From Rhytidiadelphus loreus (Eukaryota > Streptophyta > Bryopsida > Hypnales > Hylocomiaceae), in NCBI GenBank assembly GCA_947034895.1, contig OX344763.1, forward strand, positions 40,113,025-40,177,024: a stretch of DNA of 64,000 nucleotides, given 5' to 3'. Position 1 is the first letter of the stretch; each line of letters opens with the position of its first letter. Shown piece by piece: positions 2,851 to 31,240 of this stretch. Both the position numbers and the translations under genes were made by a program. Below the pieces are notes generated by a model. It was given only the letters and a program-made list of their open reading frames with translations. It did not search any database and was not told the DNA's origin.

Positions 2851-3149
2851 GTCAATTATTTGGCTATTGACAATAATATATATTCAAATTTATCAATTTT
2901 TTGGCTATTTCAACACAAAGTCATATATATTTATAAAGGATGTTCTAAAGAATTAGTAATGTTTAACATCTAACATTCCTCCTCAAGGTTCTAAAAGGGG
3001 GTGAAATTCTATAATATATATGAGGTTATAATACTCATCGAGGTAACTAAAATAGAGTTCTAGCTATACATGAAAATGGATGACATCTATATAAGCACAT
3101 ATGAAATTATTACAAACCTAAAAAAGTTATATAACTAGAAAGCAACTTA

Positions 3150-3177
3150 AGGGCCATTCTTACCTGGTGTTAGGGAA
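3150..3177 (+). repeat. Left terminal inverted repeat of the 26-kb element
   Basis: This is the 28-base left end. It pairs with 29329-29356 with two mismatches. It lies directly after TTA at 3147-3149. Confidence 0.9.
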
Positions 3178-3380
3178 CAATGACGTTAAGTCATAAAAAT
3201 CCTGCGGGTATTGGGGCCAGTCGGTTTTTAATTGATGGGGGGGTAATTTTAACCTTCCTAAATTTTCGTTATTTCATAATGGTGGGTTATTCTCACCAGT
3301 GGTCTTACGTATTTTCCGCCACCCCCAAAATCTGCCAGCAAGGCAGATAAGACCGATAAGTGAAGGGGGGGTTCAAATCA

Positions 3381-3677
3381 AGCAGAATGTCATTGTCATA
3401 TTTTTCAGTTGTCCATCTCAACGGCTTCTCTCTGAGGTAAGGTTTTAGGGTGTTTTCTTTTCCTCAAATCACTTTGTAATTCGTGTTTTCTCCTCCTTTG
3501 CGCTGAAGAAATGCAGTGTTGTATGTCTCGTTTTTGAACTCTTCCTTGCGATGCGCTTACCTGCAAATCACAACATTATTGTTTTATGGAATTATGATCT
3601 CTTGAGGTCTTCAGGGACGCAAATGCTTGTGAGGCGTAGGGAATGACTTGTGCTTGTTTGATTTCAGAGGGTTGTGG
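3381..3677 (+). repeat. Internal duplication of the Harbinger backbone, copy A1
   Basis: About 300 bp here recur at about 8926-9226 in the same orientation with roughly 10 percent divergence. A shorter piece after the 5.15-kb insert (8837-8925) recurs at about 9226-9300. Read together, the backbone held a tandem A-B, A-B duplication of its subterminal region, and the first A-B pair was split by the insert at 3683. No coding frame is visible. Confidence 0.75.
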
Positions 3678-5469
3678 GGACTTGTGAGTGTTTCTAACTC
3701 CACCCTTAAGTCAGAAAGTTGCACACAGGTTCTAGCGGCATAAATTAGTAAATTGTATGGGTGAAATGTAAACGTAGTGTTGATTGGCCTTCCAAGTAAT
3801 GGACACTTTGTTTGTGGTGATTTTTTTGTTATCTTTTAAATGCTAAATCTATGTTAATTCAATGCATATAGTTTGGTTTAGTTATCGAATCTAAATTTAG
3901 GTTTTGGGTATAATTTCTTCTAATATATCTCAAGAGCCTATCTTTAGGGTTTTAAAATGATAAAGTATGTAAAAATTGGATTTTGCCTTCAAAAGTTAGG
4001 AAAGGATGAAAAACAATCCCTAAAAAGCCTTTAAAACTTCATCTATCGTTTAAAAATAGCAAATTAGATTGATTTAAGTCCAAATTTTATCTCTGACCTC
4101 CTAATTACGTCTAGTTTCTTATCCTAAATTATTGTCTATTTTTAGTCAATTCTTAAATAGTTCATCCAAATGGGCTCCAAACTTCATCCACTGTTATTTC
4201 TTCCAAAAATGAATGAAATTTTGAATGAAAAATAGTTTTGAAATCCTAATTAGATTTTCTAAAATATTCTTAGACAAAATCTCTTAAGATATTTTATGAT
4301 CAATTTCCTACTTAACGGGTTGTATTTCCTAATCTAACAATAATTCTTTAATTTAAGTGACTATTTTTAGGGTTTTCAAAGATTTTGTGAAAAAATAAGA
4401 AATTACCTTTCTGTAAAGGTAAAATAACCAAAATTCTAACTTCTAAAAAAAAAGTTATTAATGGATGAAGTTTTAAGATTAAATAATAGCGAATTTAAGC
4501 TTTCATCCACAAATTACTTTAACTTTAATTGAAGGGGTTTGATTTTTTTAATGACTTTAAATATTCTAAACTCTAACGATTTAATTTTTTAGATTAAATT
4601 AAATTTTTCCTACTTCTAAGCTAACGAATGATTTTTAAAGCAAAACAAAATAAAGAAAAGTTGACGTACCTCTCCGATGAAAGAGTCAATCATGCTGTCC
4701 TCCAAAACCACAAGTTGAATTGTTTTGTAATATCCTGGTCCATCCTCCATCGCTAATCCATCGCAATTCCACAATTAATCTTTAATTTGGAATTGTTTTG
4801 TGGTTTTAGTTCTAACTTCTAAATAATAGTTTTGGAATTTCTATTATTTGGGGGGCTATTTAGATAATTTCCAAGTATATAGAAATTATTTAATTGTCTA
4901 AATTCAATAAATTAATCCCAATTCATTTAGAAGCTTCTAAATTCCAATTGTTTATAATTTTTTTGAAATTAGTTTGGATTTATTAGTTGACTAGTTTGTT
5001 TTATCTTCTTGTCTTTTTAGGACTAATAAAACAAAACTCCACTAAATTCCAAGCCGCTAGGAAATATAAGTTCAATAGTTAGATTCTAAAGAAATGAATA
5101 AAAAAGTCAAAATTCCTCACGTGTTCCAATTTCCCTCCCGTATTCTATTCTCTCTCCCTAATTCTTTCTCATTTGTTTTGTGAGTTTTTTAAGAGAGCTT
5201 GTGAGGTGCAACCCGAGAGAGAATGAGTGATGGAAGGTGGAAAGACAAGTTTAGTGTTTAAAAACTCAAAAGTTTTGGTGTGGCGTGCAACGGCCAACCT
5301 TTGAGTGTATTAAAGGTTGATTTTTAATTTCAATGTATAGACTCTTCACATCATAACATTGATTTTAAGATGGCAACTTACCAGATTTTTTAGTATGCGA
5401 TGGACCAAATTTTTGATATTTGAGTTTTGGATTTAACTACCTTGGTGCTCACACAAGCCTGTTTGCTCC

Positions 5470-5860
5470 GTCTGGGCTCACAACTGGCTCACGAACTGGA
5501 CTATCGAACTGGCTCACGAACTGGACTATCAAACTGGCTCACGAATTGGCTTCCGAATGTTGTCCCGTGAACTGGCTCCCGTATGCTGCCCCGTATACTG
5601 GCTCCCGTATGTCGTATACCATATACCCCCCACGTGGCTGCTTGTTACACGCTGGAATCCTTCGTTCTACACCGCCACGTCAAGCTACGTGGCGAGGCGT
5701 GATTCGCCACAGCTCTCGTCTGTTCCCGTCCACGTCCGTTACGTTCCCGTCCACATCTGTTCCCGACTGATGTTCCTGTCCACATCTTGTCCACATCTGT
5801 TCCCGACTGATGTTCCCGTCCGTTCCCAACTGTTGTCTCGGTAGTTTGGTCTCACGGCCT
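5470..5860 (+). repeat. GC-richer tandem arrays inside the LTR-type insert
   Basis: A roughly 25-bp unit built on ACTGGCTCACGAACTGG is repeated about four times from 5470. It is followed by variants of CTGGCTCCCGTATGC and then by repeats of CCCGTCCACATCTGTTCC. Open frames across this stretch are a product of the repeat composition and resemble no protein I recognise. Confidence 0.75.
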
Positions 5861-5994
5861 GACCTCGCAGTATGGCTTTAATGGTCTAGTCTCGTTCGGC
5901 AATCTTCAACTTGCTTTTAATTAACCTCAGGGTTTCCAATCGGACCTTGCCAAGCTGAACAGAACACACCTAGCAATTTAATCTAATTTTGGAG

Positions 5995-6190
5995 GCTTTT
6001 GAAAACTAAAAGGATTTTTTTTTAAAAGAAAGAAAAACTAAGAGAATTTTGAAAGGAAGACTAAAAGGCTTTGAAAGAAAAACTAAGAGAATTTTGAAAG
6101 AAAAACTAAAGGCTTTGAAAAGAAAACTAATAGAATTTTGAAAGGAAAACTAAAAGGCTTTGAAAGGAAAACTAATAGAATTTAATTTTT
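5995..6190 (+). repeat. Purine-rich tandem array
   Basis: A unit of about 40 bp, based on GAAAACTAAGAGAATTTTG followed by AAAGGCTTTGAAAG, recurs four or five times with small changes. Confidence 0.75.
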
Positions 6191-6354
6191 AGTTATTTTC
6201 ATAAATAATAAAACTAGCAAATTAATGAAAATAAAGAAATGAATGGCAACCCAAAGGTTCTAATATGTGCCCCAAAAAGAAGAGGTTGGAAATGATGTGA
6301 GTTTTGGCCTTTAATAAACTACCACATAGCGAATTTTATAAATTTTGACTTTCA

Positions 6355-6740
6355 AAAAGTCAAAGCTTCGCCGTGCGGGGGCTACCCCATGCAACACAAA
6401 GAAATCAAGGATTTAGAATTTTTAAAATACCCGTTTCCAGGATTTAAAAAGTCAAAGCTCCGCCGTGCGGGAGCAACCCTAGGAAATAACAAACAAATTA
6501 AAGTTTCAAGTACCCGTTTCCAGGTTTCAAAGTCAAAGCTCCGCCGTGCGGGAGCAACCCCAGGAATAACCAGGATCCAAGGATCCAAACTAGTATTTTG
6601 AAAACTTAATTTTTAAAGGAGGTACACATGACAGTGTTTAACTGAACATTAAAAACTAATTTCCAAAATTCCAAACAAAGTTCTAGTTTAATCACTAAAG
6701 GAGGTACACATGACAGTGTTTAACCGAACATTAGCAATTA
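6355..6740 (+). repeat. Three-copy CCGCCGTGCGGG array and a following two-copy repeat
   Basis: Around 6356-6385, 6448-6490 and 6527-6570 the segment AAAGTCAAAGCTCCGCCG plus a GTGCGGGAGCAACCC core is repeated. A second repeat containing AGGAGGTACACATGACAG occurs at about 6617 and 6699. Another pair sharing AGTTTTGGGGCTTGAAGC lies at about 6938 and 7040. All belong to the LTR-type insert. Confidence 0.75.
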
Positions 6741-9700
6741 GTCAAACCAAACACCCGTTATACAACGAGTTTTGGCACGTGGTGATGCTCAAAACCTTTT
6801 GGCAAGGTTTAGCCTTGCCGCTTTAAAGTTTCAAGTTCACAAATTGTTATCAATTCACACAAATAGTTGGTTAGTACCCAAAAGAACAAGAAAATCAATT
6901 TAGAGTTTGGGAACTACTCCCACAACTTCCAAAATATCAAAGTTTTGGGGCTTGAAGCCTCCAAATTCAAGAAATAAGTTAGTTAACTCAAACAACAATA
7001 GAGTTAGGGGATTTCCTCCACCTAAACTCTTGAAAAACAAAGTTTTGGGGCTTGAAGCCTCCAAATTCAAACAAGAAAAGAAAAGAAAGCTTTGAAGGGG
7101 CCCTCCGGACCTTCAAAGTACAAGAGAATAGAAGAAAATAGCCAAAACTTGGCTTAAAAAGTGCTCCGACAAGTGTCGGTAGCACGACAAGAGCAACAAC
7201 AAGAAATGAAAAGAGAAAATGAGGGCCACGAACAACCTCGAGGAAGGGCCTTATATACTTGCTCCCAGCCCCCCCGGTAAGTTGTTTGTAAATATTTACT
7301 TACTTTCAATCTAGATATTTTGCTAAACTACCTAAACGCGTTTTCTAAATAATCTTTGTTTAATGGGAAGGAAGGTTCTCAAGCGAGTTCCTTCTAGGCC
7401 CTAAATGGCCTTAGAATCTCTTCCCAAATCAAATATTAGATTTTTTTTAAATTTTTTTGAAAACCTACCTAATTAACTGAGATATTTTGCATTTTAATCT
7501 AAGGTTAGTTCTAAATTGTCTTTCTTTAGTTCAAAAGATGGCTTCTTACGCAAGACAAGTATCTTGGGCAAATCCAATCTTCGATTTTACAAAAGATATT
7601 TGCAAAATCAATCTAGATTAATCCAAAATTACCTTTTAAAAGTCAAACTAAGGGCTGACCCTCTCTATCTTTTGAGGGACAACTCAAAACTGAAAACAAA
7701 CTGTGCCACCGCGTTCAGAAGACCCCAATTAGCATAACGGACCCCTTACCCCTACCTCTCCAGCCGTTTTAAAGCGCAAATTTGAATCACAATAATTCAG
7801 AACAAAAGTCAAAAACCTAACTTTTGGAGTTTGCGTTTTTTGATGAAACTGTCAGTCCTGGGTGGTTTAGAATATTTGTGGGAGTAAGAATTGACCTTGA
7901 AACGCTCCATTCGGACACCGCTAGCTCCTGGTACGCCGGTCAACCCGCCGCCAAGTTGTAAATTCTTGTAAAATTCGCTGTCGGTTTTAATTCTGGTACT
8001 TGGGAATGTCAGAATGTCGGAATGTCGGAATGTCTTCAAACTTGACAGGGCTCTTTATTGGCACTCAAAACACTATTCTAATTTTTAGTGAGATTTTACT
8101 GCAACATTGGTAATTTCTAGGAATTTACGAATGCAATTTTAAGTGGTTGACTTCCCATGGAGTCATTGTGGAGTTTTGTAAAATCCCGAAATTTTTGGGC
8201 AATCTTCTATAAGATGTCCATCAACTAAGGGAAAAACCAAATCTCCAATAAGGATGCTATTTTTAGCAATTCCTTAATAATTTCTACCCGGGGGAAAATT
8301 ATTCTTGATACCGGGGGAATTTTGGATGATCGGGCTTCTATTTGACCTCCTGGCATGCTTTGACCTAGAAAAGCACCTCTCTATATGTTCCAATCATCAT
8401 TTCCTCCATCTTGGTTTGTGAATGACTGTATTTCTTAAAATTACCTACAAACAACAAATTTAACTCTTTCGAGTTGGATTTGGATTGACTCTAACTAGAC
8501 TCTAATTTTTAACCAGTTTGTTACATGCATATTTATAGATGATGTATCACATGAACAAGACACTAGGACTGGCTAACTCTCAAATCCTTACTTCGCTCGG
8601 AATTACTGACTTAACTACTTATTTTTACTAAAAAGACCTAAATTTAGTAAAAATGTAACGTCTTACGTGTTTCACGCATTTAAGGCCATTACACACCACT
8701 TTGGTAGGGACTTCTACCAAAACCCACAATAACTATATTTTTATATGTTTTTTCCTATTTTTCACCCAAAAATTAACTAAAAATCGCGAAAAATAAGTTC
8801 AGAGTTCCAAGTGCCAACTTGAGGGCTCACAGGACTGGGGGGTGGATTGGTGACTTCGAGGTGGGCAACCACAGGTTGTGTGCATCAGTGTTTTGACGAG
8901 GATTCCAACTCTAAGTTCCTTTGTAGCAGAACGTCCTTGTCATTTTTTTAATGAAGTTGTCCATCTTCAACGTCTTTTCTCTGAGGTAAGGGTATTCAAT
9001 GTTTTCTTTTCATGAAATCAATTTGTAATCAGTGTTTTCTCCTCGTATGCGCTCAGAAATTGCAATGTTGTATGTTTCGTTTTTTAACTCTTCCTTGCGA
9101 TGTGCTTACCAACAAACAATCACAGCATTGTCGTTTCATTAAATTATGATCTCTTGAGGAACACAAATGCTTGTGAGGCGTAGGGAATGACTTGTGCTTG
9201 TTTGATTTTAGAGGGTTTTGGGGGTCGGGCTGGTGACTTCGAGGTGGGCAACTGCAGGTTGTATGCATTTGTGTTGTAACGAGGATTCCAACTCTGAGTG
9301 TTGGTTACGAATGCTTTGACAAAAGTTAGGGCTTCTTGTGGCCTCAAAGTTGGATTCTACCTTCATTGCTTCTGGAAGGTTTTGTGAGGTGAAGTGAAGG
9401 ACTGAATGTGCTGGCAGTCTTTGTAAACAGGTACGAGTTCTCTATGTTTGTTGTTAATTACTTTGGCTGTTTAGGATGTTGTATCCCAAATGACTTCAAA
9501 TTTTTAAAATTTTTTCTCCTTCTACACTTCAGAATATTTTTCCGGGGGGCATCTTTCTCTTGCATTGTAGCGGTTTCAGTTGACGCATCGTTGTCTTTGG
9601 TAACCTCCGAATTTTAGAAGAAAAAAAAATTCATCACAATTGCCTTGAATGTAGGAATCAATGCTATTGTAATCTTGATCCAATTTACAATTTCTGTTGG

Positions 9701-10166
9701 TCGTGGAAATGTATGTGCTAGGCACTAATCTACCGTCCTATACTTCATTTTCTGTACAGATTTGACAAAAGACGGGACAAGCAGGGTTGTACACTGCGAC
9801 ACCGTGACACCGCGACAGATAGACGTTGCGCGACGTCTAGTGGAGCCCGCGTGACGTCAAGTTGACCAAACGTCAAGTTGACTTTAAAAAAAATCCTCCT
9901 TTGTTTACAATTTTGACATATTCAAGTCTTATTTTTATAAAGTGTCTCAATTTAATAAATACACATAACATTGTAAATTCAAGTTCATAATTATAGTGAG
10001 ATTTCAAAGTTTTTTTGGTTGTGAAAATGACCCTACTCGACAACATGTCTAGTAAACTCGACACTTCGTGACATGCGACATGCGACGTCAGATGTCATAC
10101 ACGACGCCAAAACTCAAAAATATGTCAGACAAGACAACCCTGGGGACAAGGCCAGCCATTGTCACC

Positions 10167-11525
10167 ATGGACACTGAAATGAACGTTCACTCCGCGCTCA
10201 CGTACACTGTCTGGCTCCTGCTACAACTCTTGACTGCACCACAAACTCTTTCCTTGCTTGAGCCCATTGAGGAGGATGATGATGGCAGTGACACGCTCCA
10301 ACTCATGCTCGATGTTGCGGGTGAACCTATGCAGGATCCTCACGCTATTTTCAGGGCTGCTTTACAAAATTTCCGTCTCTGTACAGCCTTCAATGGTTTC
10401 GAGGATGACTTGGGCTTCTGGGTAAAGCCTAGGTCAACTACATGGTTCTCTAGATTCTTGATGAATGAATATGATGACACGAGATGACTCCAAATGTTTC
10501 GCATGACAAAACATTCTCTCTTTGCTTTGGCTGACTTGTTGAGACTTCCTGTGCAGAAGAAAGATACAAGGTACAGGTTGGCCATTCCTGTTGTTATACG
10601 CGTTGCTTGTTGTCTCTTCAAGCTTACTCATAGTGCATCTCTATTCATATGTAGTGAGATGTTTGCCATTGGCAAAAGCACCGTCTCGGCGATTCTCATG
10701 GAAGTTGTCCATGCCATCAATGAGACCTTGCGTCACAAACTCACATGGCCTACAGGTGATCGCTTAAGAAAGACTGAAGACAACTTCTTCAATCTTTGTG
10801 GCTTACCTACTGTGGTTGGAGCAATAGATGGAACTCATGTGTCAATTTCAAAGCCCAGACATGTACCTGCAGATTATTTCTATTTCAAGTCTGGCGGATA
10901 TACTATCAATTGCCAAGCAGTTGTAGATAGTGATAAAAGATTTCTTGATCTTTTCTTGGGTATGCCGGGGTCTACAAATGACTCTCGCGTGTTGCGCCAC
11001 TCATCCCTGTATGACTTAGCAATGCACAACAATTTACTAGAGAATCAGCATGATGTGGAGGGCTTCATGCGTTACCTTATTAGAGATCTGGGGTACCCAC
11101 TTTTACCATGGTTGATGGTTCCACACCGTTCAATTGGTCGGTTGTCAATGGCGAAGGGAATTTTCAACAAGAAGCTGCGACGGGGTCGATGTGTTGTGGA
11201 GAACGCCTTCGGCATTCTAAAACAAACATTCAAGGAGTTGCTCACGAAGTCTGAATTGCATGTTGCATTTCTACCAGATGTTATCCTTGCTTGTGCAATT
11301 CTTCACAACATGCTCCTTGGTCAATCGCATGACGACGTTGAAAACCTTTTTCAAGTTCTTCGGACTAAGGGTCTGGACGGGGAAGTGCTGGATGGCAATG
11401 TAGGGCAAGAAGATGGTGGTGATGGCGGAGATGTTCTAACAAATGATGATGTAGTAGAGATTGCAAACGAGAAACGCAATGCCCTAGGACTGTACCTAAG
11501 CATGCAACGTCAAGTGCCTCAGTAG
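10167..11525 (+). pseudogene. PIF/Harbinger DDE transposase with one nonsense codon
   Basis: This gene encodes a HARBI1-like nuclease that would cut and join the element ends. The start chosen is the ATG at 10167, in a strong GTCACCATGG context. An in-frame GTG or ATG further upstream (10068/10080) lies in low-complexity sequence. The frame is open to 11525 except for TGA at 10485-10487. That is codon 107 of 452, at a place where TGG (Trp) would give DDTRW followed by LQMFRMTKHSLF. Residues 110-340 show a helix-turn-helix (GKSTVS) and the DDE catalytic set: D in AIDGTH (about 221), D in GSTNDSRV (about 272) and E in VVENAFG (about 345). A downstream ATG at 10494 could start a 343-residue product that keeps all three acids. 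The C-terminus is acidic and low complexity. The neighbouring Myb partner gene converges on it, 233 bp away. Confidence 0.9.
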
Positions 11526-11758
11526 ACAAAAACAGAAGAGTATGACACCACATTCTTCCTAAACTAATTTTTTTTTTCTTTCAATTACATGTTTAATTCA
11601 AAAGGTAGTGATGACCACAGAGGTTCATCAGCAGTCCTAGTCATGTCGATGCTTTGCTTTCTAACGGATGCCTGTTTGTACTGTGTAGTGTTGACGTCTA
11701 GCAAGCGCTGGAGAACTACACCTCTAATGTTTAGAGAAGAGGGACGACAAGGACGTCT

Positions 11759-12079
11759 TCAAGTAGTCGGGTGCTCTGCAGTCGAGAATGTAGGATCGAC
11801 AACAAGGGTGGAGGTAGCATCTTGTCTTGGCAGGTCTTCGTCAATACAATTAGTATTTGCAGTCTTGTTTGTATCATCCTTGTAGTCTTGGGCAACAGCA
11901 GGCAACTTGTTCTTGATTGTTTGTTCCCCAAAGTCATTATAGGGGCAGAAGGTAGCAGTAGATATGTCGATGGGGGGCGGTCGGTAGGAAGAGAAGGGTG
12001 CACTTGTGTCATACCATGCTGCCGCTTGTGGCAGGTGTGGGAGTATTTGGCCGTTTTTCATAGTTAAGCTTTTGCTTAA
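11759..12079 (-). pseudogene. Harbinger Myb/SANT partner gene, C-terminal piece
   Basis: This is the last of three pieces of one gene. The reading frame continues exactly from 13005 once the TTAA-flanked insert (12080-13000) and one TTAA are removed. It adds 106 codons and ends in TGA at 11759-11761. The sequence is hydrophilic and rich in Asp, Thr and Pro, with no recognised domain. The stop is 233 bp from the end of the transposase gene on the other strand. Before the continuity was seen, this looked like an isolated small open frame with no homology. Confidence 0.72.
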
Positions 12080-13000
12080 CCCCTAAGGACCATTGTCCCC
12101 TCGGGGGACAAAATGGATTTTGGGCAAGTTCCTATGATCTCAATTTTCAGTGAATTTTTTTGAAACTTTTTCATAAGATAGGAAAACTTATGAGCTTCAT
12201 GGGAATATAAATTTTAATTCAATTGGTGCCCGAGAGCAAAAGTTATAGCATCTTAAACATAATTTACACGTCACCGGGTAGAAAAATAAATCTACAAAAG
12301 TTTGAAATTAATTTTTTAATTTTTTTCTTCTTAAAGATCATATTTTTGTCTACATGTGAAGCTTTGATTCATTCCATTTGGATTAGTAATGTGAAAGTTA
12401 TGAACAATCTTGTTTTTTGGGCAATTTGAGCATCTTCTTGAAGAAATAACTTATAGGATTCAATTCTGAATGTAATTTTCAATTTTTCAAAAAAAATTGT
12501 TTGACAAGGTTAACTTTTCTATTTAGAACAATCTCACCATTGAGATTATTGTGTTTCAATCCCATTTTAGAGCTATTAAAGATTTAGTTTTTCTTTCAAT
12601 CTTGGACCTACTTCTACTGAACAATTTTTTAAAGAATGAAAATCAATCGTGTTTTTTTTTTTTTTTTTAATTCTAGACTTTCAACTCAATTCTTCAACAC
12701 AAAATTTTTTAAATTCAAGGTTCATGGTGTAACTTTTTTCCCCAAATGGCATTCAAAGTCATCTGAAATTGCAGGCTAGTGTTCAAAAAAACTTTCTTTT
12801 TTCAACTTTGAATGCTAATATCTTCCAATCTGTACGGTCAAACTCCATGAAATTTTTACCACATGATACTAGACTAGTAAAGTACAAGACCCTACGGTTA
12901 GATACTAAAAAAAGTATTTTTTTGTTTTTTTGGATGAATGCAGCAAAAATGGCAGTTTTGAGTAGTTTTTGACAGAAGAACGGCCCTAGTCCTTTAGGGG
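12080..13000 (+). mobile_element. TTAA-flanked non-autonomous DNA transposon, copy 2
   Basis: This 921-bp insert lies between TTAA at 12076-12079 and at 13001-13004. Its ends are CCCCTAAGGACC and, inverted, CCCCTAAAGGACT. The interior is related to 232-1156 throughout, most clearly near the right end (GCTAATATCTTCCAATC, then TTTTTACCACATGATA). It sits inside the partner gene and would truncate it with transposon-encoded residues. No frame of its own is supported. Confidence 0.9.
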
Positions 13001-13004
13001 TTAA

Positions 13005-13670
13005 AACATTCGAAAGTTGTGCTAAGCAATTTACCATCTCCCCTTGCTTCAAAATGGATAGGCGGGCATTCTCATTAGCCACCACTGCATTCTCGTAAAG
13101 TCTCCGGTCCTTCTCTCGTTGATATGACATCTGCTCACTGAACAACTTCATTTGCACCTCAATCTTGGAATGTTCCAAGTCCCGACTGGATTCTGCTATA
13201 TCTTGCATATGTTGCGCCATGACAACTCTTGTGGATTCTGTTGCCTCCGCTATTATGGCATGTCCTGAGAGATTCTTGGACTTGATAGCAGTGTTTCCTG
13301 GACGTTTCTTCACTTGGTATTGAGTCGTGTTGGATGAACTGATAACTTGGGGGGTCACACCTGCGGGTAGACCACGCATTGGACTCGAAGTTGGTGTGCC
13401 TGTGGACCTCACAGAGCCCCCTACTCCTGAAGGTGTCGTTGACATTTGATGCGGGGACCAAGGGGATGTGTTGTCTGCATTAGCCTCTGTTGGTTCTGGC
13501 AGAGGAAGGTCCATGGGGTCTTCCATGGCCGGTTCACTACTCCCTTCATCTCCATGGTCTTTGTCATGTCCATGTGGTTCGTAGTTGGAGTCATCTGGTG
13601 CAAGCAAATCACGGACATGAGGGGGTTGGATTGTTGGATGAGTGCCATACCACTCATGGATGGCAACAAA
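13005..13670 (-). pseudogene. Harbinger Myb/SANT partner gene, middle piece
   Basis: This 222-codon piece lies between the CACTA element (on its 5' side) and the TTAA element (on its 3' side). It begins within a conserved stretch (FVAIHEWYGTHPTIQPPHVRDLL) and continues through an acidic, Pro/Ser/Thr-rich linker. It ends in a charged helical region (about 13010-13230: EHSKIEVQMKLFSEQMSYQ and ENARLSILKQGEMV) likely to form a coiled coil. In known PIF/Harbinger elements the Myb-like partner binds DNA and helps import the nuclease, and the helical tail may mediate contacts. As interrupted, the frame would run on into the TTAA element. Confidence 0.8.
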
Positions 13671-13719
13671 CACTATAAGAAACTGGCGTTTTTGGTGTTG
13701 TTCGGCAATGACATGTGCT

Positions 13720-16020: not shown

Positions 16021-16313
16021 TTACTCTGTTACGGAAGACATTTCCTATGACGAAACTATACACATACTTCAGACAACACGGAAGAAGACCATTATTTTCG
16101 GGACGATACTTAGCCTTCCTAGTCCCTGCCTTCTACCTCGTGAGGACTTTCCAACTGAGTAGGTGCGAGAATGTATGCACCGCCCATGATTGTAGGATCT
16201 CGTATGGGCTCCTCGTCTAGCAATTCTGGTTGCAAACCAGCAAACAGGTCGTCCTCTCCAACATCAATGATTCCAGGAATGCCTTGCTCAACTTCTAATT
16301 GTCCGCGCCTTCC

Positions 16314-19300: not shown

Positions 19301-20643
19301 TGCGAGAAATCTAATGCGGACACGCCTAACCACAATTCCTGCAATTCCTTCAGAAGTGGACGCAAAAAGATGTCTATGTTCTTAGCCGTCGGTGAGTGCT
19401 TCCCTGAAATCAATATGCACAATGAAATGAAAAACTTCTTGGTCACGAACCAGGGTTCAAAGTTGTATATCAAAATCAATACCGGCCATGTGGACCAATT
19501 TGTGTTATTCAGCTTGAATGGATTGACTCCATCCAAAGCTAGAGCTAGCCGCATGTTCTGAATTTTTGATCCAAACGTGCCGAAGGCGACGTCGTTGTTG
19601 ATGTGCTTCCACGCTGGACTATCTACTACAGAACGCATCACCCCGTCTTCACTAACATGTTTTCTGTACCCTGTCAACATGCGCGCTATGTCAGACGACC
19701 TCCACATCCTTTTCAGACGAGGAATGAGGGGGAAGTGTCGAATGACCTTAGCAGGAACTGTATTCGTGCCATCCACCCATCGTCCCCTGCTACAGTGTGG
19801 ACAGAAATTATGCTCAGCATACTCTTCTTCAAATAGAATACATCCGTTGGGGCATGCATGGATGTTGTTGTAGTGCAAGCCCAATCGGCGAATGCTTTTT
19901 CTTGCGGCATAATACGTCTGCGGTAACTTGTTACCGTTTGGCAACAAATCCGTTGACAGAAATCGGAACAACTCATCAGTGAACTTATTGCTCACACGAA
20001 ACACTGTGCACATATTTATGAGAATGATCGTGGCTGACACTATGCTTGTTTTCGAACCTGGGTACACAACGGTAGTTGCTTCATGGTACAAGTCCTGTAA
20101 TCCATCAATGGTGTCGTCAAGAATTTCATCTTCTTCGACACAATCATCAGCTACTTCTGCCTCGTCATGCAAGGCATCCCCCCTATCAAAAGCCTCCAGC
20201 ACCTGACGTTGCACTTCGTGGTACTCATCCACAGAAGCTTCCCCTTGCACTTCCGGGTCTTCTTCAGATCCAACGGGCACATTCATGTTCTCATTGTCGT
20301 CGGCAGCATGCACGATGTCATCACCGAAAGCTATGTCTTCCACCCATATTCCTCTTGCTGGATAGCCGTCTGGCGGGTCGCCACCGATGAGTGACTTCTT
20401 CAGAAAGGGATCACGACCAACTGCCAAATGGTGTCTTCGTATCACTTGTATAGTCTTCCGACGCCCACCTTTGCAGTCCCTACAAGGGCACCTAAAAGAC
20501 ATGACATTTTTCTCAGTGGCCACTCGCAACTCAGTTTGTAAAATTAAGTCCTCGACTGGGATGTGCCGTAGTGTACGTCCATCACTACATATCCGAATGG
20601 TTGCACCCGCCCCCCGCATACTACGGTTTATATGCTCAACCAT
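16314..20643 (-). CDS. TNP2-type CACTA transposase, four exons, 1110 residues
   Basis: The exons on the minus strand are 20643-18862, 18486-18139, 17798-17245 and 16962-16314. All junctions are GT/AG and the joined frame is open from ATG to TGA. Exon 1 holds an N-terminal Cys/His-containing region (FRCPCRDC), an acidic linker and the Transposase_21 core, with FCPHC, the NMRLALALDGVNPF segment, YKGCPSCG and a region ending LSAFYELEYWQ. Exon 2 continues with HIFDAMHCEKNLCENIVKTL, the TNP2 helix around the Glu. Exon 3 is a DUF4218-like region (MTHLPVHL, GPVHCRWMYPIERYMKTLK, PEGSIAEGY). Exon 4 is DUF4216-like (VVLVCDW, RDRYGFTMANF, CQQVFFSDDP). The order and length fit TNP2 of En/Spm, which cuts at CACTA ends. 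No break is visible, so it may be functional. Confidence 0.9.
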
Positions 20644-22503
20644 AGTGCTCGTCGTCTATGTTGAAGGTGGATATGAATGTACCACAAACTTGCAGCGAAA
20701 TGCTGTGCACTCTCTGCATACAGAAGAGTTAGCATGTCAGAGGACGTAGTCACCAAAAAGTAATGTGAGCCATATATCCTGTGGATGCCATATCCGACAT
20801 CAGAAGGGATCATTATTGTCAAAGAATACATTGCCCTGCAAACTTACGTGACGACGGCAATCTTCAGGACGTCCAACATGTCGTCCACCTTACTTTATGA
20901 CGCTGGGACAAATGCATGGCATTTTTTTGCATTTCCACAAACATGAAGAGGAACAAGCTTTGTCCAATACTTCGTGAACTATAAATTTCTCAACAGAACA
21001 TTAAAGACATACTATAGACATGTTACATGTCCTTTTTCGACATACATGACAACAGACGTTTTCATGATGGGCTGCAGAGGACGTCCACAATAACGTGTTC
21101 TACGACAGCAAGATGTCTACTCTGACATGTACACGTCCAAGCGGACGTCTCGTTGGACATGCCAGTAGACACCCCATCGAATAACCAGCATCCCAAGACT
21201 TTCTAGTATAACAAGTCCCACGTGTCTGTCCACTGTCGCACACGGCAGACGCAATACAAGAAGGCGGGACACTTTTTGTTCGTCTGGCCGAACCCTAACG
21301 TTAGAACTTAGAATAGCAAGTGAAATTTAGGATTGTAGTGCAAGTGCTCACCGCTATGGCAATGATCGCTGCTGTTGTTGACCACTGTAGGGTTCTTGAA
21401 TTTCCGAAATGTGCACACGAAGCGCACCTCGTAGAGGTAGATGACTGTAAGGCAGCTGTCGTTCTCTCCAATCTTGTATCAGCTTCCACGGTTCAAGAGT
21501 GCAAGAGGAAGTCGATGACTGCCAGATTGGACTATGACGGCCATGCAGTTCTTCGACGAAGCGCACGTCTGCATAAGGAGACCACAGTGCCCATGGCTGC
21601 AGAAGGTCCGCAACCAATCCCACTTGCTTTCAGTGCACAAGCTATTGAGGTAAATTGAACAGAACCCTACTTCTCATTTTTTGTTGTGCTTGTGAGCATC
21701 ATGAATTGCCCATTCTCCAGTGAATTTGGTGCTCAGCGTGTCCGGTACATGGGAATTCGTGCAGTCGTCATTCACGAAAGTTGGCATTGGCGGCGGAGCC
21801 CTGGGCGGCAGTAGGACCCGGCCACGTTGGTAGGGCCTTTCACGGTTATAGGTCGGCTTTACATTTTCATAAATTGCATTTTTGTGTGCCGCCATTTCCA
21901 TTTCTGTGTTTTGTGGGACGTGGGGCTTCCTTTGTGGCTGTCGTTTGCTGCAGTCTTCCCTGCCGGGGTTGTACGAAAGTGGTGACCTTAGTGCGACGGT
22001 GAGCTTACTGCAATGCAATTTGGGGAAGTCATGTGCACATGCTCCTCATGTTTTTTTGCACCGCTTGCATTTGCATTGCAGAACTTTGATGTCATAAACG
22101 TCAGGTACTTCAAAATGTTGTTGTCACCTGCAATTCAGGGTTTGTGAGTAAGTAAATTATGTTTTGTGAATGTCGGTTCTGTCATTAAGTCCCAAGTCGG
22201 TCGTCCTTCAAATTCTGCCAGGGTTTGGGTGCACCAAGCACATTGTATACAGCAGTAGCAGTGGTGCTAGATCAAGCCGCCGACCTGACAAGGAAAGTTG
22301 TACATGGGCCGGACACGATCACACAACAAATGCTGTGAAGAAGGTCGTTGTACAAAGAACATGGCGTAGGAGACTTTTGGCAAAACAAAGGGCCACATAA
22401 TGAGGGTTGCGGAAACACAAGAGAGTGCTAATACTAGTTGCTGCGCTGTCATGTGTGTTAGGACCGCAAGTTCTTTTTGAAGTGGGCAGTGCCTGCAGTG
22501 AAC
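20644..22503. promoter_or_regulatory. Divergent intergenic region of the CACTA element
   Basis: This gap separates the start of the TNP2 gene from the first secure exon of the TNPA-like gene and should hold both promoters. GACGTC, GGACGTCC and GACATG-type words cluster at about 20870-21170. An open frame at 21356-21649 (ATG to a GT donor after GAG) may be a 5' exon of the TNPA-like gene. It joins in frame only through a weak acceptor near 22470. Confidence 0.45.
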
Positions 22504-25500
22504 ATGCCTCGGCCTCGTGAGCATTCCGGGAAGCGGAAGTTTGCCACACATCGGGGGAGTCCTGCATCTGACGAAGGACGTCCTGTCGCCGTCGATAGTC
22601 GCATGCGTGCAGAGGGTGAGCGGAGGTCGAAGGCACGTGAAGACCCACGACGTGGTGCAATAGGCCAATCGAAAGCCCTCTTTGTTCCAGCGTCTCCTTC
22701 TAGGAAAGGCAAAAGATTGATTCCAGTGCCGTCAGAGTCTGAGGATGAACAAGCAGTACAAGGCGACCACAGCGTAGGCATGCCCGACATCTCTCAGTCT
22801 TGGAGGTAAGTTGTCATCAATTGTGGCTATTTTCATGCATAGTTAGTGATTGCTTAGGAGGACAGGCATGACGCGAAGACGTTCATCCTGACGTCAAGAG
22901 AAACATACGCGTGTCATAGTAGACGTCACCATGGACGCGTGAATTGAATCAGTCGTTTGCAGTGACATCTATATAGATATGCATGCGTTCCGTCTGACGT
23001 TTAGGAAGGCATTTTTGGTTGTGGTGGTCCTCAACTTTCTCATATTGTGCCTTCTTATGTTTAGGAGCCCATAAGATGTGTTTGTCAATGTTGTTGCAGA
23101 ACTTTGTATTCATAGAACATATGCATAGTCATGACAAGTATTTGTTGAAGTGAAAGCCTTTCTTCATTGCCTTTCTTCTGGACATGTGTTCTGGTATATC
23201 TAAGCACAGGGATGAATGGACAACAAAGTTGCAACCTTGCAACGATATGCACAAATGAGTCATGGCATTCAAATTAGTCCTCGCCGCCTGTATGTTGTCC
23301 AAGATGTGTAAGCCTCGATTTCTAGAAATTGTAGAGGATGTATTAGCCATATTGTTTCTCATAGTTACTATTGTTGTGCAGCCGAGGCTATGATACAGCA
23401 TCTGAAGAGGACTCAGATGCTGGCACAGATGATGCCATTGACGCATTGCAGCCATTGAAGAAGCGAAAGGGCACGGCGTCATCGGCAATGAAGAAGCCAA
23501 TTGAACTAGATGGTCAGGGACAACCTTTTGGTTCTATGAAGGCATGCCTAGCGGATGATGTAAAGAAGTACGTAAAGGAATTAGATCCCACTACAAGATG
23601 GGAAGGACAACCACGGCGTAGACGAAGGCGCTTGTTCAAGCGGCTTTATACAGGTATGTCATGGACACCTTCTCACTGTGCATTGTGCGGTTGATAGCTT
23701 CTTCTGATTTTCATTCCTGTATTAGACATTATGGAAGACGTCACCCGTGACATCTCTTTTGACATTTGTATGTTCATGAGGACGTCAGCTGGGATACATG
23801 TGCACGGCAGCCACTTCTCCCATCGCCGAAGGATTCATCGGCCATCCACTGTACTGTTTGATCTTCTTAGTCTATAGTGATGTCATTAATGTACATTGCC
23901 AATGTCTGCAGACGATAAATGATTCATGCAATTTGTTGTCCATGCAGACTGGCAGATGGGTGGTGACTCCAATAGAGTTAGTGAGAAGTGGATGCGGCCT
24001 ATAATAACGAAGGTGCTCATTAACAGCAGGTGGAAAATCAATCAAATGATAGATGCCGACTTGCCTAGGCCAGCAGATGTGGAGCCCGATCATTGGAAGA
24101 TACTAGTTGCTATGCGGAGCACGGAGGCCGCACAGAAGAAGTCAGAGCAAATGCGGTCAATATCACAGGGAAAGGGCTCACTAACAGCGCAAATGAGGGC
24201 CATTGAGAGAGAGGTCATTTCACGGCTGGTTAGTGTCCTACAGTCCATGTGTTTGACTTTGCTTAGTTCTACATCCTTCTCACAGACGGACGTGCACTCC
24301 GATGTCAACATTGATGTCCACATTGACATGTGATGTTCTTCCCTTCCACGGCAGTACTACAATGAAGTAGTTTGTCAATTTTTTATAGGGTGGTCGCACA
24401 GTTACGATGCACTGACAAGACTGTTTGCCGGAATGTGGTGGATGTTATGTGCAGACCATGCTGAAGAATCGTCCACCACACGATAAGGAAGTAGACGCAG
24501 AAGTGGCAAAGGAATACCAACGCCTGCAGGAAGAGAAGCGTCAGAAGCGTCCGAACGTCGGTCGAGACATAGAAGACATGCAGAGTCGTGTCACTGACTT
24601 GGAAGACAGCGTCACACGACTAGGAGAGAACATGACAGCATCGCACAAGCGTTTGGAGGAAATGCTCCAACAATTGCTGTGTAGTCCACGGCCAAAGGAA
24701 GTCGCGGCATTAGAGGACAAAACAGAGCCGTCATCATCCGCAATGGTGTTGGACACATTGGTACTCACATGCACCCCAAATTGAACATGCAGAATTGCGT
24801 AACATACTGTCTTCGTAACAATGCTAATTCAGTAGTCCACTCTGTAGGTGCCAGCACCATCCTCGGCAGCCGTTCATGGACACGGGAAAACAAGCCCTTT
24901 AGAGGACGCCTCCATCGACGACGAAGTCATGGAAGACGTTCTAGGAAATGGCGTGGACGTAGGAAACAACGATGAAGGAAACAAGGTACTAGAGCCTGTC
25001 AACAACGTCGATGTCGTTGACACTCACGTAGAGGAGGTGGATGTGTATGCGATGGTCAGCAATGACGATGTGCAGCAAGTGTTGCAGACTTCCATAACTG
25101 CTATCGATGACATTGCAGACCATGAGGTGTAGCACATTTCCGCTCTTCAGTATATGAAAGAAGTCGTGCTTCTGTTGAAGAACTGCAACTAAGCTTCCAG
25201 GGTTGTGCTTTAAGTGACTGTCCATTGAGGGCAGGGATGTAGCAATGTGAAGTCGCTGTGTTTTAGGTGGCGCGGTCTATTTTGGCCGACATCCCGTTGC
25301 ATGTCCAAACAAACATATTGTCTACCAATGTCCATGAATAGAAGCACTTCTTTTAATATGTCATTGCAATAAATATGTTTTGCTCGTCTTAGCACACGCT
25401 ACTTTTTTCTTCTTTTATGGTGGGGTTCCATGACAATATATATTGCAAGTGTCCAGGAAATATAATAAGAAGCTCTTGTTCAATAATGTCTGCAACGACT

Positions 25501-25953
25501 CAGTCATTCATGTAGACATACTAATACTTGCACATTCTCATGTAATTGGAGGAATGGGGCTTGCAGAATGACGTCAACGTCCAAGGAGAGTCCGCAATTC
25601 GCACGCGACAAGCAGCAAAGAATACTGTAGCACCGAAGGCACCGAAGGTACTTCCGAAGCCTGGAACAACCAAAGCAGTTGTTCCAAAGGCAACTGCCTT
25701 GCCTAAACCTCCTGCAACCTCTACCAAGGTGGGTATGCATTCACTTTTTCAGTAGTTGACAATCTGACATGTGGTAAAGAAGTTTTCATAATTAATGTCT
25801 GAGTGATGTTTCATTTTACGAATTACAAAGCCATGCATTGAATTTTCACAAAGATTCCACTGGTTTCTCATGCACTGCTTCTGTTCACATGGAATGCCAA
25901 CATTGCAGGTGCCTGCTTCAAAGAAAGCTGAGCCATGTCGACAGAAGAAGTGA
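22504..25953 (+). CDS. TNPA-like CACTA accessory protein, seven exons, 548 residues
   Basis: The exons are 22504-22805, 23382-23653, 23948-24228, 24455-24760, 24848-25126, 25567-25728 and 25909-25953. Each intron is GT/AG and the phases agree, giving 549 codons with TGA. The first exon is basic (MPRPREHSGKRKF). Exons 2-3 carry the plant transposase (Ptta/En/Spm, TNPA-like) pattern of spaced Trp and basic residues: RWEGQPRRRRRRLFKRLYTD, NRVSEKW, INSRWKINQM, EPDHWKILVAM, AAQKKSEQMRS. Exon 4 is a strong coiled coil (DIEDMQSRVTDLEDSVTRLG). Exon 5 is acidic. Exons 6-7 are Lys/Pro/Ala-rich. TNPA-like proteins bind subterminal repeats and bring the ends together. The start is uncertain because a further 5' exon may exist (21356-21649). 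Confidence 0.75.
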
Positions 25954-27327
25954 GCATGTATGTACATTCATGACGTAGATGTCAGCGCAGGCGGACATTG
26001 TTAGCGATGACGTCTACGAAAGCATTGTATAGTTGTCTGCGTCTCTGAGTAGGCAGTTCTATCATGTTTTTGTTTTGGACTTCTGCAACATCAAATTTTT
26101 TGCCTGCTACTCCAGTATGCATATACATAGTTCACATGACACTACCACTTTCTGGCTTGTACAATGAGTTCATTGCATAGCCACTGCTGTACAGGACAAA
26201 ACGATGGCTTTGGTAAACATTTTTGTTTTTTCTGTACTCTTGTGGGTGAACACGTCAATCACGCAATGATATTGTTTGGTAATATTTGTAGGCACGGCAT
26301 TTGCAGCGACGTTGCCATACATATAGTGACCTATACGGCCCATACTCCTTCATGTTTGCTATCACATTTCATGGGACGACTCTTAAAGAATTGCTTGTCC
26401 ACCAAGGCATCTACAGTGATGTCTCAGAAAACTCAGTCACATGTTCCATTGGGGAAATTATGACATTCAAAATGCTCTAGCAAACAAGACGTGTGTAAAC
26501 TTATACATTGTTGGAAGCAACTATGCAAGGTCTTCGAAATATACTTTATGTCCACGTGAGTGCTGAAATTTGATAGTGACGTCCACTCCGCTGTCCCTCA
26601 CAATGGCGTCGAAGATGGCGTCAACACTTTCACTTCCATGCATGTTTCATTCCTTGTCTACAAAAACGATCATCTCATAAGGAACAATCAGTATACATGT
26701 CTCGCGTGACGTCCACTGCCACGATGTACAAAATTCCTACACTCGGACAACGTCATTTTTCATGTTCACCAGGACAACATTTTAGACACACCTATGTTCT
26801 TCAACATGTGTCCTACAATGTCCCATGCTCTACTACTATATATTTGAAGATCAATTATTCGTCCGCTTTGACGTCCAATAAAACATCCTTCTGTCATATA
26901 CGATGTCCTAAAAATCATGCATTCCTATAGCCAAAACAAGAATGCACTGTACACGTATACATCTAAGAAAGCCAACTCACATTTAATGAGGTCCACGTCA
27001 CTATTTCCCGCCTCCACGTCAATGTCCACGTAAGTCACGGGCTGCAAGAAAAAAATCATTACGTGGCACTTGTCATCTATGTGGCGCTGATGTGGACAAC
27101 AATTGTCGTCCATGTGTCGCACATTTACAGCATTGGAAAACCTTGTCTTCAGCAACGTTTTCAGAAAACAAGCTCAAATCCGTCATGTTTCTTTTTATTT
27201 TTGCATGTTTTTTGGTGATCCATTATAACAGATTTTAGGAGACGTCTACACTAATCACTGACACGTTTTTTTAGACGTCAACTACTGTTTTTCAAAATGT
27301 CAAATAAAACTACTGTTTCTTATAGTG
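25954..27327. promoter_or_regulatory. CACTA right subterminal region rich in GACGTC words
   Basis: No gene is seen. GACGTC, GACGTCCAC and GTCCACGTCAATGTCC-like words recur at about 25975-26010, 26580, 26710, 26870, 26990-27030 and 27240-27290, on both strands and close to the CACTA end. The density fits TNPA-binding subterminal repeats, but no binding can be shown from sequence. Confidence 0.5.
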
Positions 27328-27330
27328 AAA

Positions 27331-27816
27331 AATGTCTTGAGCAAAATGTTTAGGTAGACCCTCGGCCTTCCGCTCATTCGAACTCAACTCCCAATAGTCA
27401 GGTATGCTTCTCCCCGTTCTACAAAAATAGTCCACAATTTTTTTGTAATCTGGTATAAGCTGGTTCCATTTTGTCTTGCATGCGGGTCCATCACGAACAC
27501 AAGGTGAAAAGCCGGCACGCATTACTTCCTCTAAAATCTGAACCCACTTGGTGTTGTCCAGCGTCATGAGGTCCCGACCATCTACAGTATCCAAATCCTC
27601 TAAAAACATCTCACGCTTTGCAACTATGAGGGTGAGGATTTCTTGGGGACTCCAATTCGGCCCTCGATCCTTGTGTAGGCGCTTTGATTGGCTAGTGTTG
27701 CCTTGGACTGCAGTAGTTGATGCAGGTCGAGGTATGCTTGCAGGAACGCGTCGTTGGAAGAAGGTTCGATTCGGTTGAAGCACAACAAGTGGAGTGCCTG
27801 CAGTTACTGTATGCAT
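27331..27816 (-). pseudogene. Harbinger Myb/SANT partner gene, N-terminal piece with DNA-binding domain
   Basis: This holds the ATG (27814-27816) and 162 codons. Residues about 50-150 form a trihelix/Myb-like (Myb/SANT) domain: NWSPQEILTLIVAKREMF, KWVQILEEVM, CKTKWNQLIPDYKKIVDYF, then YWELSSNERK. It then runs into the CACTA end, which supplies HYKKQ and a stop. Without the CACTA element and one AAA, the frame continues into 13670 as LPKHFAQDIFVAIHEWYG. The rejoined gene (with 13670-13005 and 12079-11759) is 491 codons with no other break. A TGA lies two codons before the ATG. An AG acceptor just inside the frame (TGCAG, about 27801) leaves open an upstream exon that I could not find. Confidence 0.85.
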
Positions 27817-29328
27817 TAGTCAATTATTCCATATTTTTCAGTACTTCTAGAAAACAGCATAAGAAAATGCGTATTATATGTGTAGGTCTACTAGTACATC
27901 GTGGACAATGCATGACTCGTGAAGATGACAGTAGAAACCAAAAAAACTAAAAAGGTGAAGTACTAAACCACAATTGCAGCATGGAACTTCAACTAGACAT
28001 TTACTTACTTTGGCATTGGAGTGTGTGTTTGTGGTGTGCAGGTCTAATTCCCATAACATCATACCAATCGCATGGACCATGACCACTACAGAACTGAAGT
28101 GTTAAGCAAAAAATCTGAAAGAAACGTCAATGTTGGACTTACTTCAGGATATGCTATTCAATGTTTTCATGAACCATGTTCCATAGGCACAATTCAATTC
28201 TGTAGTCCAGAATGCCGAAGACAAGGCTTTTGACGACTAGGCGACTGACGACACGACTTTTGACGGAAATACATTGCTAGTTTCATGAACTGGAACTTAG
28301 ATTTTGAAAAATAAATGTATTCTTTCTATGACAGTACTCACAGTAGTATTGTATGTGAAGATGAAACTAACCGTTCATTGTGATTGGTGTAGGTCGCACT
28401 AGAGCATTGTAGACTTCAGCTTTTAGGCGGTTCTCCATGTTGTGGTTTCACAGCAATGCAGTTGTGGAACTTGAAAAATAAATATCAAAATGGAATGAAG
28501 GTGATAAAACTACCAGTTCTTGAGATTTGTGAGGAGCACAAAGGAGTGCATTCGAAGAGAGAATACGTTTCCTACAAATCAAGAAACCCATTCAAGTGCA
28601 TTATAAGTCCATTAGATTCACAAGCACAGTCCACCAAGGTACGTCTCTTCCATCGATTTCCAACTGCATTATAGAACTGAATGTGCTAGTCGTAGTCACA
28701 ATTGAAGTGTAACTACGGTTCCAATAAACCGTAGGCAAGGTGCAATGCAAAATGTCATGAAATTGAAGCATAGGAAAAAATACTAATTTACAATGCGTGC
28801 GTTTGTTGAGCACCATGCAGTCTAAAGGAAATGATGGAATGAAGTTTTTGAAACAAAAACATGAGGGCAAACAACTTACCAAAACAACTTCGAAGGACGT
28901 CGATGAAGACACATTACAGGTACGTGAAATAATCGTACGTCCCAATTTATGCTCTGCCACTCTAAGCCTCCAGCAGTCGAATGCTCTAGTTGTATTGTCC
29001 ATTTTTGGTGAAGCCAGACTGAAAGGTAAAGCGGGAAATTGGGCTTAATATGCGATAGCGGTATTTGGTAATGGAATGTGATGGCGGCGATTATAAAACA
29101 CAAAAACTACACTCCCGAGATTTTCTCAAATGTTCATTTTTTTTAGATTGTGGCAGTATGTAACAGTGGGTACTAAAGCCAAAGTTATAGGAAGTCATCA
29201 AACTACTCTTCAGCTAACATCGTGCTTTCGAACCTACCAGCAGGACCTCCACCTCGGTTCAGGATCTAATACCTCCACGTAGTGTGAACAAGTACAAGTT
29301 ACCTGCCAACAACCACCGCTTTTTAATC
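27817..29328. other. Right flank of the Harbinger backbone, no gene seen
   Basis: This is about 1.5 kb between the partner gene start and the right terminal repeat. Short frames on both strands (for example 28797-29048 and 28601-29002) overlap one another and match nothing I recognise. It probably holds the partner gene promoter and subterminal sequence. Confidence 0.5.
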
Positions 29329-29356
29329 TTCCCTAACGCCAGGTGAGAATGGCCCT
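29329..29356 (-). repeat. Right terminal inverted repeat of the 26-kb element
   Basis: This is the inverted partner of 3150-3177, with two mismatches. It is followed by the TTA duplication at 29357-29359. Confidence 0.9.
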
Positions 29357-29365
29357 TTATCTATT

Positions 29366-30079
29366 GGGTGATTGCAAGAAAGACCGATCCTACGAGGCGT
29401 CACAATTGAAGTGACGGAGTTGGTTTTGGCCATAACCCTTGGAAATTGAAGCCTATGAATTTGAAATTTTTATGGAAGATTGCTAACTCAGAAAACATGA
29501 GTTTTGTTATTTTTCAAATTTTTTGAAAAATAATTTTATAATTAAATATCAATTTAGCTAATTTGTCACACTTTGTGGTTTAGGGTTTTTTAGTACTGTT
29601 AAGTATCCAAAAAACATGATGTTCACTTGACTTTTTTGTGGCCTATTCCCGCACTAGATGGGCATATGCCCACCAAAGGGAATTAAAAAAAACACAATTT
29701 TTTGTCCTCAACATGCATGCAAGTAGGGGTCCCTTGTGCATAGCACTCCAAACGTTCATGATGGTTTCAACTTCTAGTTTTTGGTGAAATGTAATCACTA
29801 TCAAGTCTTTATAAATGGACAATTTTTAGTTTTTTTTATTCATGATTTTCTAATTTTTATTAATTTATACTTGATTTTATCTACTTTCTGTGACAAATTG
29901 TCATTTTTTTAAGTAGTATTGTTTCAGTATTATAAAGTACTCAAAAGTACTATTGGCCGTTGATTTTTCAAATCAACGGCTGAGATTGCTCCATTTTGTA
30001 GTACTCCTAATACTGGGCAGAAAAACGTAGTTTTTGACCAAATACTACCAAAATCGTTCAGTCTTTCTTGCAATCACCC
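29366..30079. mobile_element. 714-bp MITE with long perfect inverted ends, 6 bp from the giant element
   Basis: The left end GGGTGATTGCAAGAAAGAC is exactly inverted at the right end (GTCTTTCTTGCAATCACCC), and the repeat runs a few bases further with one mismatch. TATT flanks both sides (29362-29365 and 30080-30083). Unit 2 has a single TATT at the same point (about 39538-39541), so the insertion is confirmed. The interior is AT-rich and non-coding. The superfamily is not clear from a 4-bp AT-rich duplication. Confidence 0.88.
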
Positions 30080-31171: not shown

Positions 31172-31240
31172 TTAACTCCAATTCAAATGCCTTAACAGAA
31201 TTCACTCAATTCTTCTAGAAATGGAAGTGTCTTAACTGAA

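What the first reader, a model, noticed from the sequence alone, without database searches (positions are those of the whole stretch)
3147..29359. 26-kb PIF/Harbinger-type composite with its empty site preserved in the same window
The inverted ends (3150-3177 and 29329-29356) are flanked by TTA. Unit 2 has the identical flanks with a single TTA at about 39534. This gives direct proof of insertion, exact borders and target duplication without any database. Harbinger elements are normally a few kb. Here 26.2 kb is bounded by a single matching end pair because three large inserts accumulated inside.
Basis: seen in the sequence. Interest (0 to 1): 0.9.

Follow-up and report, generated by a model that had tools for sequence, protein, structure and literature searches.

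The report
Nested moss transposon with empty site
A jumping gene of an ordinary kind landed in one of two neighbouring gene copies of a moss-like plant, other mobile elements most likely piled up inside it later, and the second gene copy still shows the untouched landing site; it is a clear textbook case rather than a new kind of element.

Summary
A 26,207-bp element (3150-29356) has 28-bp inverted ends (26 of 28 match) and TTA duplications. On the right only 9 bp match before another 714-bp element (29366-30079) interrupts; homology then resumes.

It is PIF/Harbinger: DDE_Tnp_4 transposase, Myb/SANT ORF1, TTA target. Three inserts explain its size: 5,156 bp of unknown type (3680-8835, TSD TGGGG), a 921-bp TTAA-flanked element (12080-13000) and a 13,657-bp CACTA (13671-27327, TSD AAA). 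The last two interrupt ORF1 coding sequence, as relatives that read across the sites show. Without inserts and duplicated targets 6,461 bp remain, an ordinary size. ORF1 is broken twice and the transposase by an in-frame stop, so this copy could move only with proteins supplied in trans.

The host looks like a moss. Precedents are printed: Medicago has a TIR/TSD-bounded Harbinger sequence of 21.7 kb with a nested insertion, and paralogous empty sites. The genome search for other copies never ran, so transposition of the whole 26 kb is neither shown nor excluded.

The parts
3147..3149 (.). left target duplication TTA
   Evidence: single TTA at 39524-39526 in unit 2
3150..3177 (+). left terminal inverted repeat (28 bp, 26 of 28 match the right one)
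3150..29356 (.). PIF/Harbinger element with three nested inserts, 26,207 bp
3381..3679 (+). first copy of an old tandem repeat unit in the 5' region (82-83% to 8925-9223)
3680..8835 (.). insert 1: 5,156 bp, TSD TGGGG (3675-3679 and 8836-8840); type unresolved, no Pfam family in six frames at E 0.1 (five frames) or 0.05 (one frame)
8836..8916 (+). rest of the first tandem unit, cut off by insert 1 (85% to 9219-9299)
8925..9299 (+). second tandem unit, uninterrupted: serves as internal reference for the insertion point of insert 1
10167..11522 (+). Harbinger transposase (PF13359); one in-frame stop at 10485-10487; candidate catalytic D, D, E present
   Evidence: the catalytic residues were assigned by me from conserved motifs
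11750..12075 (-). C-terminal tail of ORF1, beyond insert 2 (approximate limits)
   Evidence: open frame; contiguous in relative P0125, E 9e-5; weak
12080..13000 (.). insert 2: 921-bp element with ends CCCCTAAGGAC / CCCCTAAAGGAC, flanked by TTAA (12076-12079, 13001-13004), in ORF1 coding sequence
13001..13670 (-). middle piece of ORF1
13671..27327 (.). insert 3: 13,657-bp CACTA element, ends CACTATAAGAAAC, TSD AAA (13668-13670, 27328-27330), in ORF1 coding sequence
16317..20655 (-). CACTA tnp2-type transposase exons (Transposase_21, DUF4218, DUF4216)
27328..27819 (-). N-terminal piece of ORF1 with Myb/SANT domain
29329..29356 (-). right terminal inverted repeat
29357..29359 (.). right target duplication TTA
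29366..30079 (.). separate 714-bp element, TSD TATT (29362-29365, 30080-30083), 6 bp beyond the Harbinger target duplication
39524..39526 (.). single TTA: the empty site in unit 2

Best explanation
A PIF/Harbinger transposon of about 6.5 kb, with convergent transposase (+) and ORF1 (-) genes, inserted by cut-and-paste into a TTA in unit 1 of a tandemly duplicated kinase locus of a moss-like plant; unit 2 keeps the unoccupied target. Three other elements then inserted into it: one of unknown type near the left end, a TTAA-flanked element in the ORF1 tail and a 13.7-kb CACTA in the ORF1 body. Shown: outer borders and TSD, empty site, borders and TSDs of the three inserts, interruption of ORF1 coding sequence at two places, in-frame stop in the transposase. 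Inferred: that the inserts came after the Harbinger landed here, their order, and that the copy is now immobile unless proteins are supplied in trans.
For: Outer ends, TTA duplications and single TTA in unit 2. PF13359 and PF13837 inside. For the CACTA, 36 of 67 ORF1 relatives match on both sides of the site, and 35 of those 36 read across it with the one-residue overlap that a 3-bp duplication gives; the 36th, P0150, has a gap of 2 residues. For insert 2, the alignments of 52 of 67 relatives end at query residue 223 or 224, the codons at its border (6 end earlier, 9 later), and the tail beyond it continues contiguously in P0125. For insert 1, two pieces align to one uninterrupted second tandem unit with a 5-bp overlap equal to its TSD. 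The remaining 6,461 bp lies within sizes printed for Harbinger elements (PMC2213677, passages). Three elements of unit 1 (232-1156, 3150-29356, 29366-30079) are all missing from unit 2, which speaks for a pre-insertion state there. No stop codon lies in the ORF1 pieces as read, which suggests that they were split recently.
Against: No clock dates the inserts relative to the Harbinger insertion, so 'accumulated in place' is parsimony only. Precise excision from unit 2 cannot be ruled out from the site alone. Insert 1 has no recognisable end repeats, its TSD lies in a run of G, and no coding match was found. The ORF1 tail match beyond insert 2 is weak: 3 of 67 relatives at E 0.01 or better. Identity between the units drops from 97% left of the element to 87% right of it, so conversion has acted on the locus and its divergence is a poor clock.
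Confidence: 0.84

Rival explanations
1. The element already carried one or more of its inserts when it jumped, so that a composite of up to 26 kb was moved here as one unit by transposase and ORF1 supplied in trans.
For: The only intact matching end pair bounds the whole 26 kb, and its ends look intact. The tandem duplication in the left arm is old (15-18% divergent) while the left flank pair differs by about 3%, so that part of the left arm may predate the arrival. It says nothing of the inserts.
Against: No second copy seen; the ORF1 pieces show no further decay; size would be unusual for a cut-and-paste element of this superfamily. The flank divergence is distorted by conversion (674-bp identical run).
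Confidence: 0.08
2. Both units once held the Harbinger, and unit 2 lost it by precise excision.
For: Excision in this superfamily is usually footprint-free: 109 of 110 events in a yeast assay with mPing (PMC2836001, passages).
Against: Two more elements of other kinds (232-1156; 29366-30079, only 6 bp away) are also cleanly missing from unit 2; losing all three exactly is less likely than never having had them.
Confidence: 0.06
3. The outer ends belong to two different Harbinger copies, and the DNA between them was moved as a macrotransposon.
For: A second stretch of left-end-like DNA (8925-9223, 82-83% to 3381-3679) lies inside, and a weak end-like sequence lies about 240 bp before it at about 8682.
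Against: The repeat is better read as a tandem duplication split by insert 1: order D, R, D, R with similar divergence. The end-like sequence at about 8682 was not among the six best matches to either outer end and has no partner. Transposase and all ORF1 pieces fit one element.
Confidence: 0.02

Closest known systems
MtPH-M-2-IIa and related PIF/Harbinger elements of Medicago truncatula (PMC2213677, passages seen)
   Same: Sequence bounded by TIRs and TSDs that spans 21,696 bp because of nested insertions; another element there holds an unidentified 2,191-bp insert with a 5-bp TSD; paralogous empty loci used as proof of mobility.
   Different: There the nested element named in the passage is a Gypsy-like retrotransposon; here a CACTA, a TTAA-flanked element and an unclassified insert. 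Moss-like host.
Ping/Pong/mPing of rice (PIF/Harbinger; PMC2836001, passages seen)
   Same: Two genes, ORF1 (Myb-like) and transposase; 3-bp target duplication.
   Different: Here both genes are broken and convergent, and the element is swollen by inserts.
CACTA (En/Spm) elements of plants (recalled, and Pfam families)
   Same: CACTA ends, 3-bp TSD, tnp2-type transposase (Transposase_21) with DUF4218 and DUF4216.
   Different: Nothing tested sets it apart; it is the largest insert here.

Membership tests
PIF/Harbinger superfamily | 3-bp TTA/TAA target duplication | tested here: met
   TTA on both sides, one TTA in unit 2
PIF/Harbinger superfamily | terminal inverted repeats (14-25 bp in the Medicago paper) | tested here: met
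   28 bp, 26 matching; slightly longer than the printed range
PIF/Harbinger superfamily | DDE transposase of the DDE_Tnp_4 / Plant_tran type | tested here: met
   PF13359 E 7.1e-28, PF04827 E 6.1e-14; top relative 74% over 99% of the query
PIF/Harbinger superfamily | second gene, ORF1 with Myb/SANT domain, paired with the transposase | tested here: met
   PF13837 E 6.4e-8; 11 contig lengths are shared between the 120 listed transposase rows and the 67 ORF1 rows, compared by eye, six of them above 100 kb; equal length is taken as same contig, an inference
PIF/Harbinger superfamily | active transposition | not testable with these tools
   both genes broken
CACTA (insert 3) | ends beginning CACTA and 3-bp TSD | tested here: met
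   CACTATAAGAAAC at both ends, TSD AAA
CACTA (insert 3) | tnp2-type transposase | tested here: met
   PF02992 E 1.7e-60, PF13960, PF13952
piggyBac or Kolobok-like (insert 2) | TTAA target duplication | tested here: met
   insert 2, and a second copy at 232-1156 with a single TTAA in unit 2
piggyBac or Kolobok-like (insert 2) | transposase of that superfamily | tested here: inconclusive
   the elements are about 0.92 kb and no transposase was seen; I did not scan them on their own; superfamily left open
composite transposon moved as one unit | a second copy with the same inserts at another target | not tested
   The genome search unanswered 14 of 14 times (last)

The most novel reading that the evidence does not exclude
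The 26-kb composite, or a large part of it with one or more inserts aboard, moved as a single cut-and-paste Harbinger unit by means of proteins supplied in trans, so that a Harbinger end pair carried a CACTA and other elements as cargo.
Probability: 0.08. Interest if true: 0.5.

Novelty: new member of a known kind. Interest (0 to 1): 0.2.

Why it matters
It is a clean worked example: nested elements of at least three kinds, each insert with borders and target duplication, read against a paralogous empty site, an internal tandem repeat and protein relatives. It shows how a 6.5-kb transposon can look like a 26-kb one. It would matter more only if other copies showed that the whole had moved together, since that would put a size of 26 kb within reach of Harbinger transposition.

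Tried and rejected
A blind scan for end repeats plus target duplications in 2901-30200 found only the 714-bp element clearly above five shuffles (score 30 against best shuffle scores of 21-23). Its filters left out duplications of a single letter (so the CACTA) and lengths above 16 kb (so the outer element); these came and from reading the sequence. Two candidates at the best shuffle score, 8281-12284 (13-bp ends, AATAA; it would enclose the transposase) and 5032-8178 (TAAAA), were rejected as chance level, not disproved.

A second Harbinger left end at about 8682, expected if the inner repeat were a nested Harbinger, gave only a weak gapped resemblance and was dropped. Classifying insert 1 failed: no Pfam family in six frames, no long terminal repeats among the direct repeats listed (20 of 21 families shown), and only a faint resemblance of its ends.

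In the CACTA, a TnpA-like match (PF03004, E 0.0008, below the curated cut-off) on 23923-24330 did not come back when whole frames of 20656-27302 were scanned at E 0.05 (0 families in six frames). Only one of six frames of 13700-16320 was scanned.

The end pattern had 0 exact matches in viral contigs and in genome contigs, and no relative of the transposase was confirmed in viral contigs. These collections hold viral, bacterial and archaeal DNA and say that records near the window may be left out, so these misses mean little. A solved-structure search gave one chance-level hit. A moss genome paper met in a listing (PMC10619864) used the letters of piggyBac only in 'piggybacking' (passages).
Full report
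Outer element. The inverted ends at 3150-3177 and 29329-29356 match at 26 of 28 positions and are flanked by TTA. A 25-base pattern written from both ends has no third match in the window at up to 3 mismatches, and 100 shuffles gave none. The interval is 26,207 bp.

Empty site. The window holds two paralogous units: 44-231, 1157-1391 and 1371-3149 pair with 37322-37509, 37506-37737 and 37746-39526, and pieces of 30079-34817 pair with pieces of 39528-44888. The left flank pair differs at 54 of 1782 columns. At the insertion point unit 2 has a single TTA, 39524-39526. On the right, nine bases (TTATCTATT) match, then a 714-bp element with TSD TATT intervenes (29366-30079), and homology resumes at 87% over 246 bp. 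So the right-hand evidence is 9 bp plus the continuation behind a second insertion.

Identity. Inside lie a transposase with DDE_Tnp_4 (PF13359, E 7.1e-28) and Plant_tran, and on the other strand a protein piece with Myb/SANT domains. The transposase search gave 660 proteins at E 0.001 or better among 3147 candidates, 120 listed; the top one is 74% identical over 99% of the query. Motifs that I take for the catalytic residues, D, D and E, are at residues 114, 165 and 238 of the piece 10488-11522. An in-frame stop lies at 10485-10487, and the frame before it matches relatives in line with the frame after it. These features make it PIF/Harbinger.

Insert 3, CACTA. Ends CACTATAAGAAAC at 13671 and 27327 (42 inverted pairs found, 25 shown), TSD AAA, tnp2-type transposase with DUF4218 and DUF4216. 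It splits ORF1: of 67 relatives of the middle piece, 36 match both sides of the site, and in 35 of those 36 the two matches overlap by exactly one residue, as the 3-bp duplication predicts; the other has a gap of 2.

Insert 2. 12080-13000, 921 bp, flanked by TTAA. It sits where ORF1 alignments stop: 52 of 67 end at query residue 223 or 224, 6 earlier and 9 later. The tail of ORF1 goes on beyond it in an open frame that follows directly in P0125 (36% over 47 residues, E 9e-5); 3 of 67 relatives match the tail at E 0.01 or better, as the tail is poorly conserved. A second member of the family lies at 232-1156, with TTAA on both sides and a single TTAA in unit 2 (37506-37509).

Insert 1. 3381-3679 repeats at 8925-9223, and 8836-8916 repeats at 9219-9299, with 82-83% and 85-86% identity. 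Read in order, this is an old tandem duplication whose first unit is cut in two; on the uninterrupted second unit the two pieces overlap by 5 bases, TGGGG, the duplication that flanks 3680-8835. The insert has no Pfam match in six frames, no clear end repeats, and its TSD lies in a G run, so its class is open.

Arithmetic. 26,207 minus 5,156, 921 and 13,657 and the duplicated 5, 4 and 3 bases leaves 6,461 bp. Lengths printed for Medicago Harbinger elements in the passages that I saw run from 442 to 8,707 bp, the longest of these with a nested insertion, with one TIR/TSD-bounded sequence of 21,696 bp (PMC2213677).

Timing. Three elements present in unit 1 are missing from unit 2, two of them within 6 bp of each other, which favours a never-occupied unit 2 over precise excision, though excision of this superfamily is usually precise (PMC2836001, passages). 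Unit divergence is not a safe clock: the left flank holds a 674-bp identical run (2260-2933) and identity drops to 87% on the right, which points to conversion. The inserts cannot be dated against the Harbinger.

Host. The one ORF1 relative with an organism name is from Ceratodon purpureus (67 rows). Of 91 listed kinase relatives, 20 carry an organism name, 19 Ceratodon purpureus and 1 Physcomitrium patens. A moss is likely; the species is unknown, and named moss genomes are few in the database.

Verdict. The case is ordinary in kind: nested insertions in a Harbinger, with a paralogous empty site. The open point is whether any of the composite ever moved as a whole, and that needs the genome search that did not run.

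Noticed in passing
232-1156 and 37506-37509: A second TTAA-flanked element of about 925 bp, related to insert 2, with its own empty site in unit 2; ends GCCCTAAAGGACC / CCCTTAAAGGACC. Superfamily unresolved (TTAA suggests piggyBac or Kolobok; recalled).
   Followed up: partly
29366-30079: 714-bp element with a 22-bp end repeat and TSD TATT, inserted 6 bp from the right target duplication of the Harbinger and absent from unit 2.
   Followed up: partly
2260-2933 against unit 2: 674 identical bases in a flank that otherwise differs by several percent, and a drop from 97% to 87% identity across the insertion: likely gene conversion that did not pass the insertion.
   Followed up: partly
14728-15036 and 12342-12646: A 310-bp stretch inside the CACTA is 67% similar, inverted, to the middle of insert 2: perhaps an old copy of the TTAA family inside the CACTA.
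   Followed up: no
39774-40330: About 557 bp present in unit 2 and missing from unit 1 between otherwise paired stretches; perhaps an insertion special to unit 2.
   Followed up: no
34294-34817 and 44362-44885: The far ends of the two units carry a 98.5% identical 524-bp stretch in opposite orientation, more alike than most of the units.
   Followed up: no
31244-32575 and 41141-42532 (-): Paralogous protein kinase genes in the two units; relatives with organism names are from mosses.
   Followed up: partly
450-1022 and 52667-53237: Inverted pair, 79% identical over about 575 bp: further relatives of the TTAA-flanked family.
   Followed up: no
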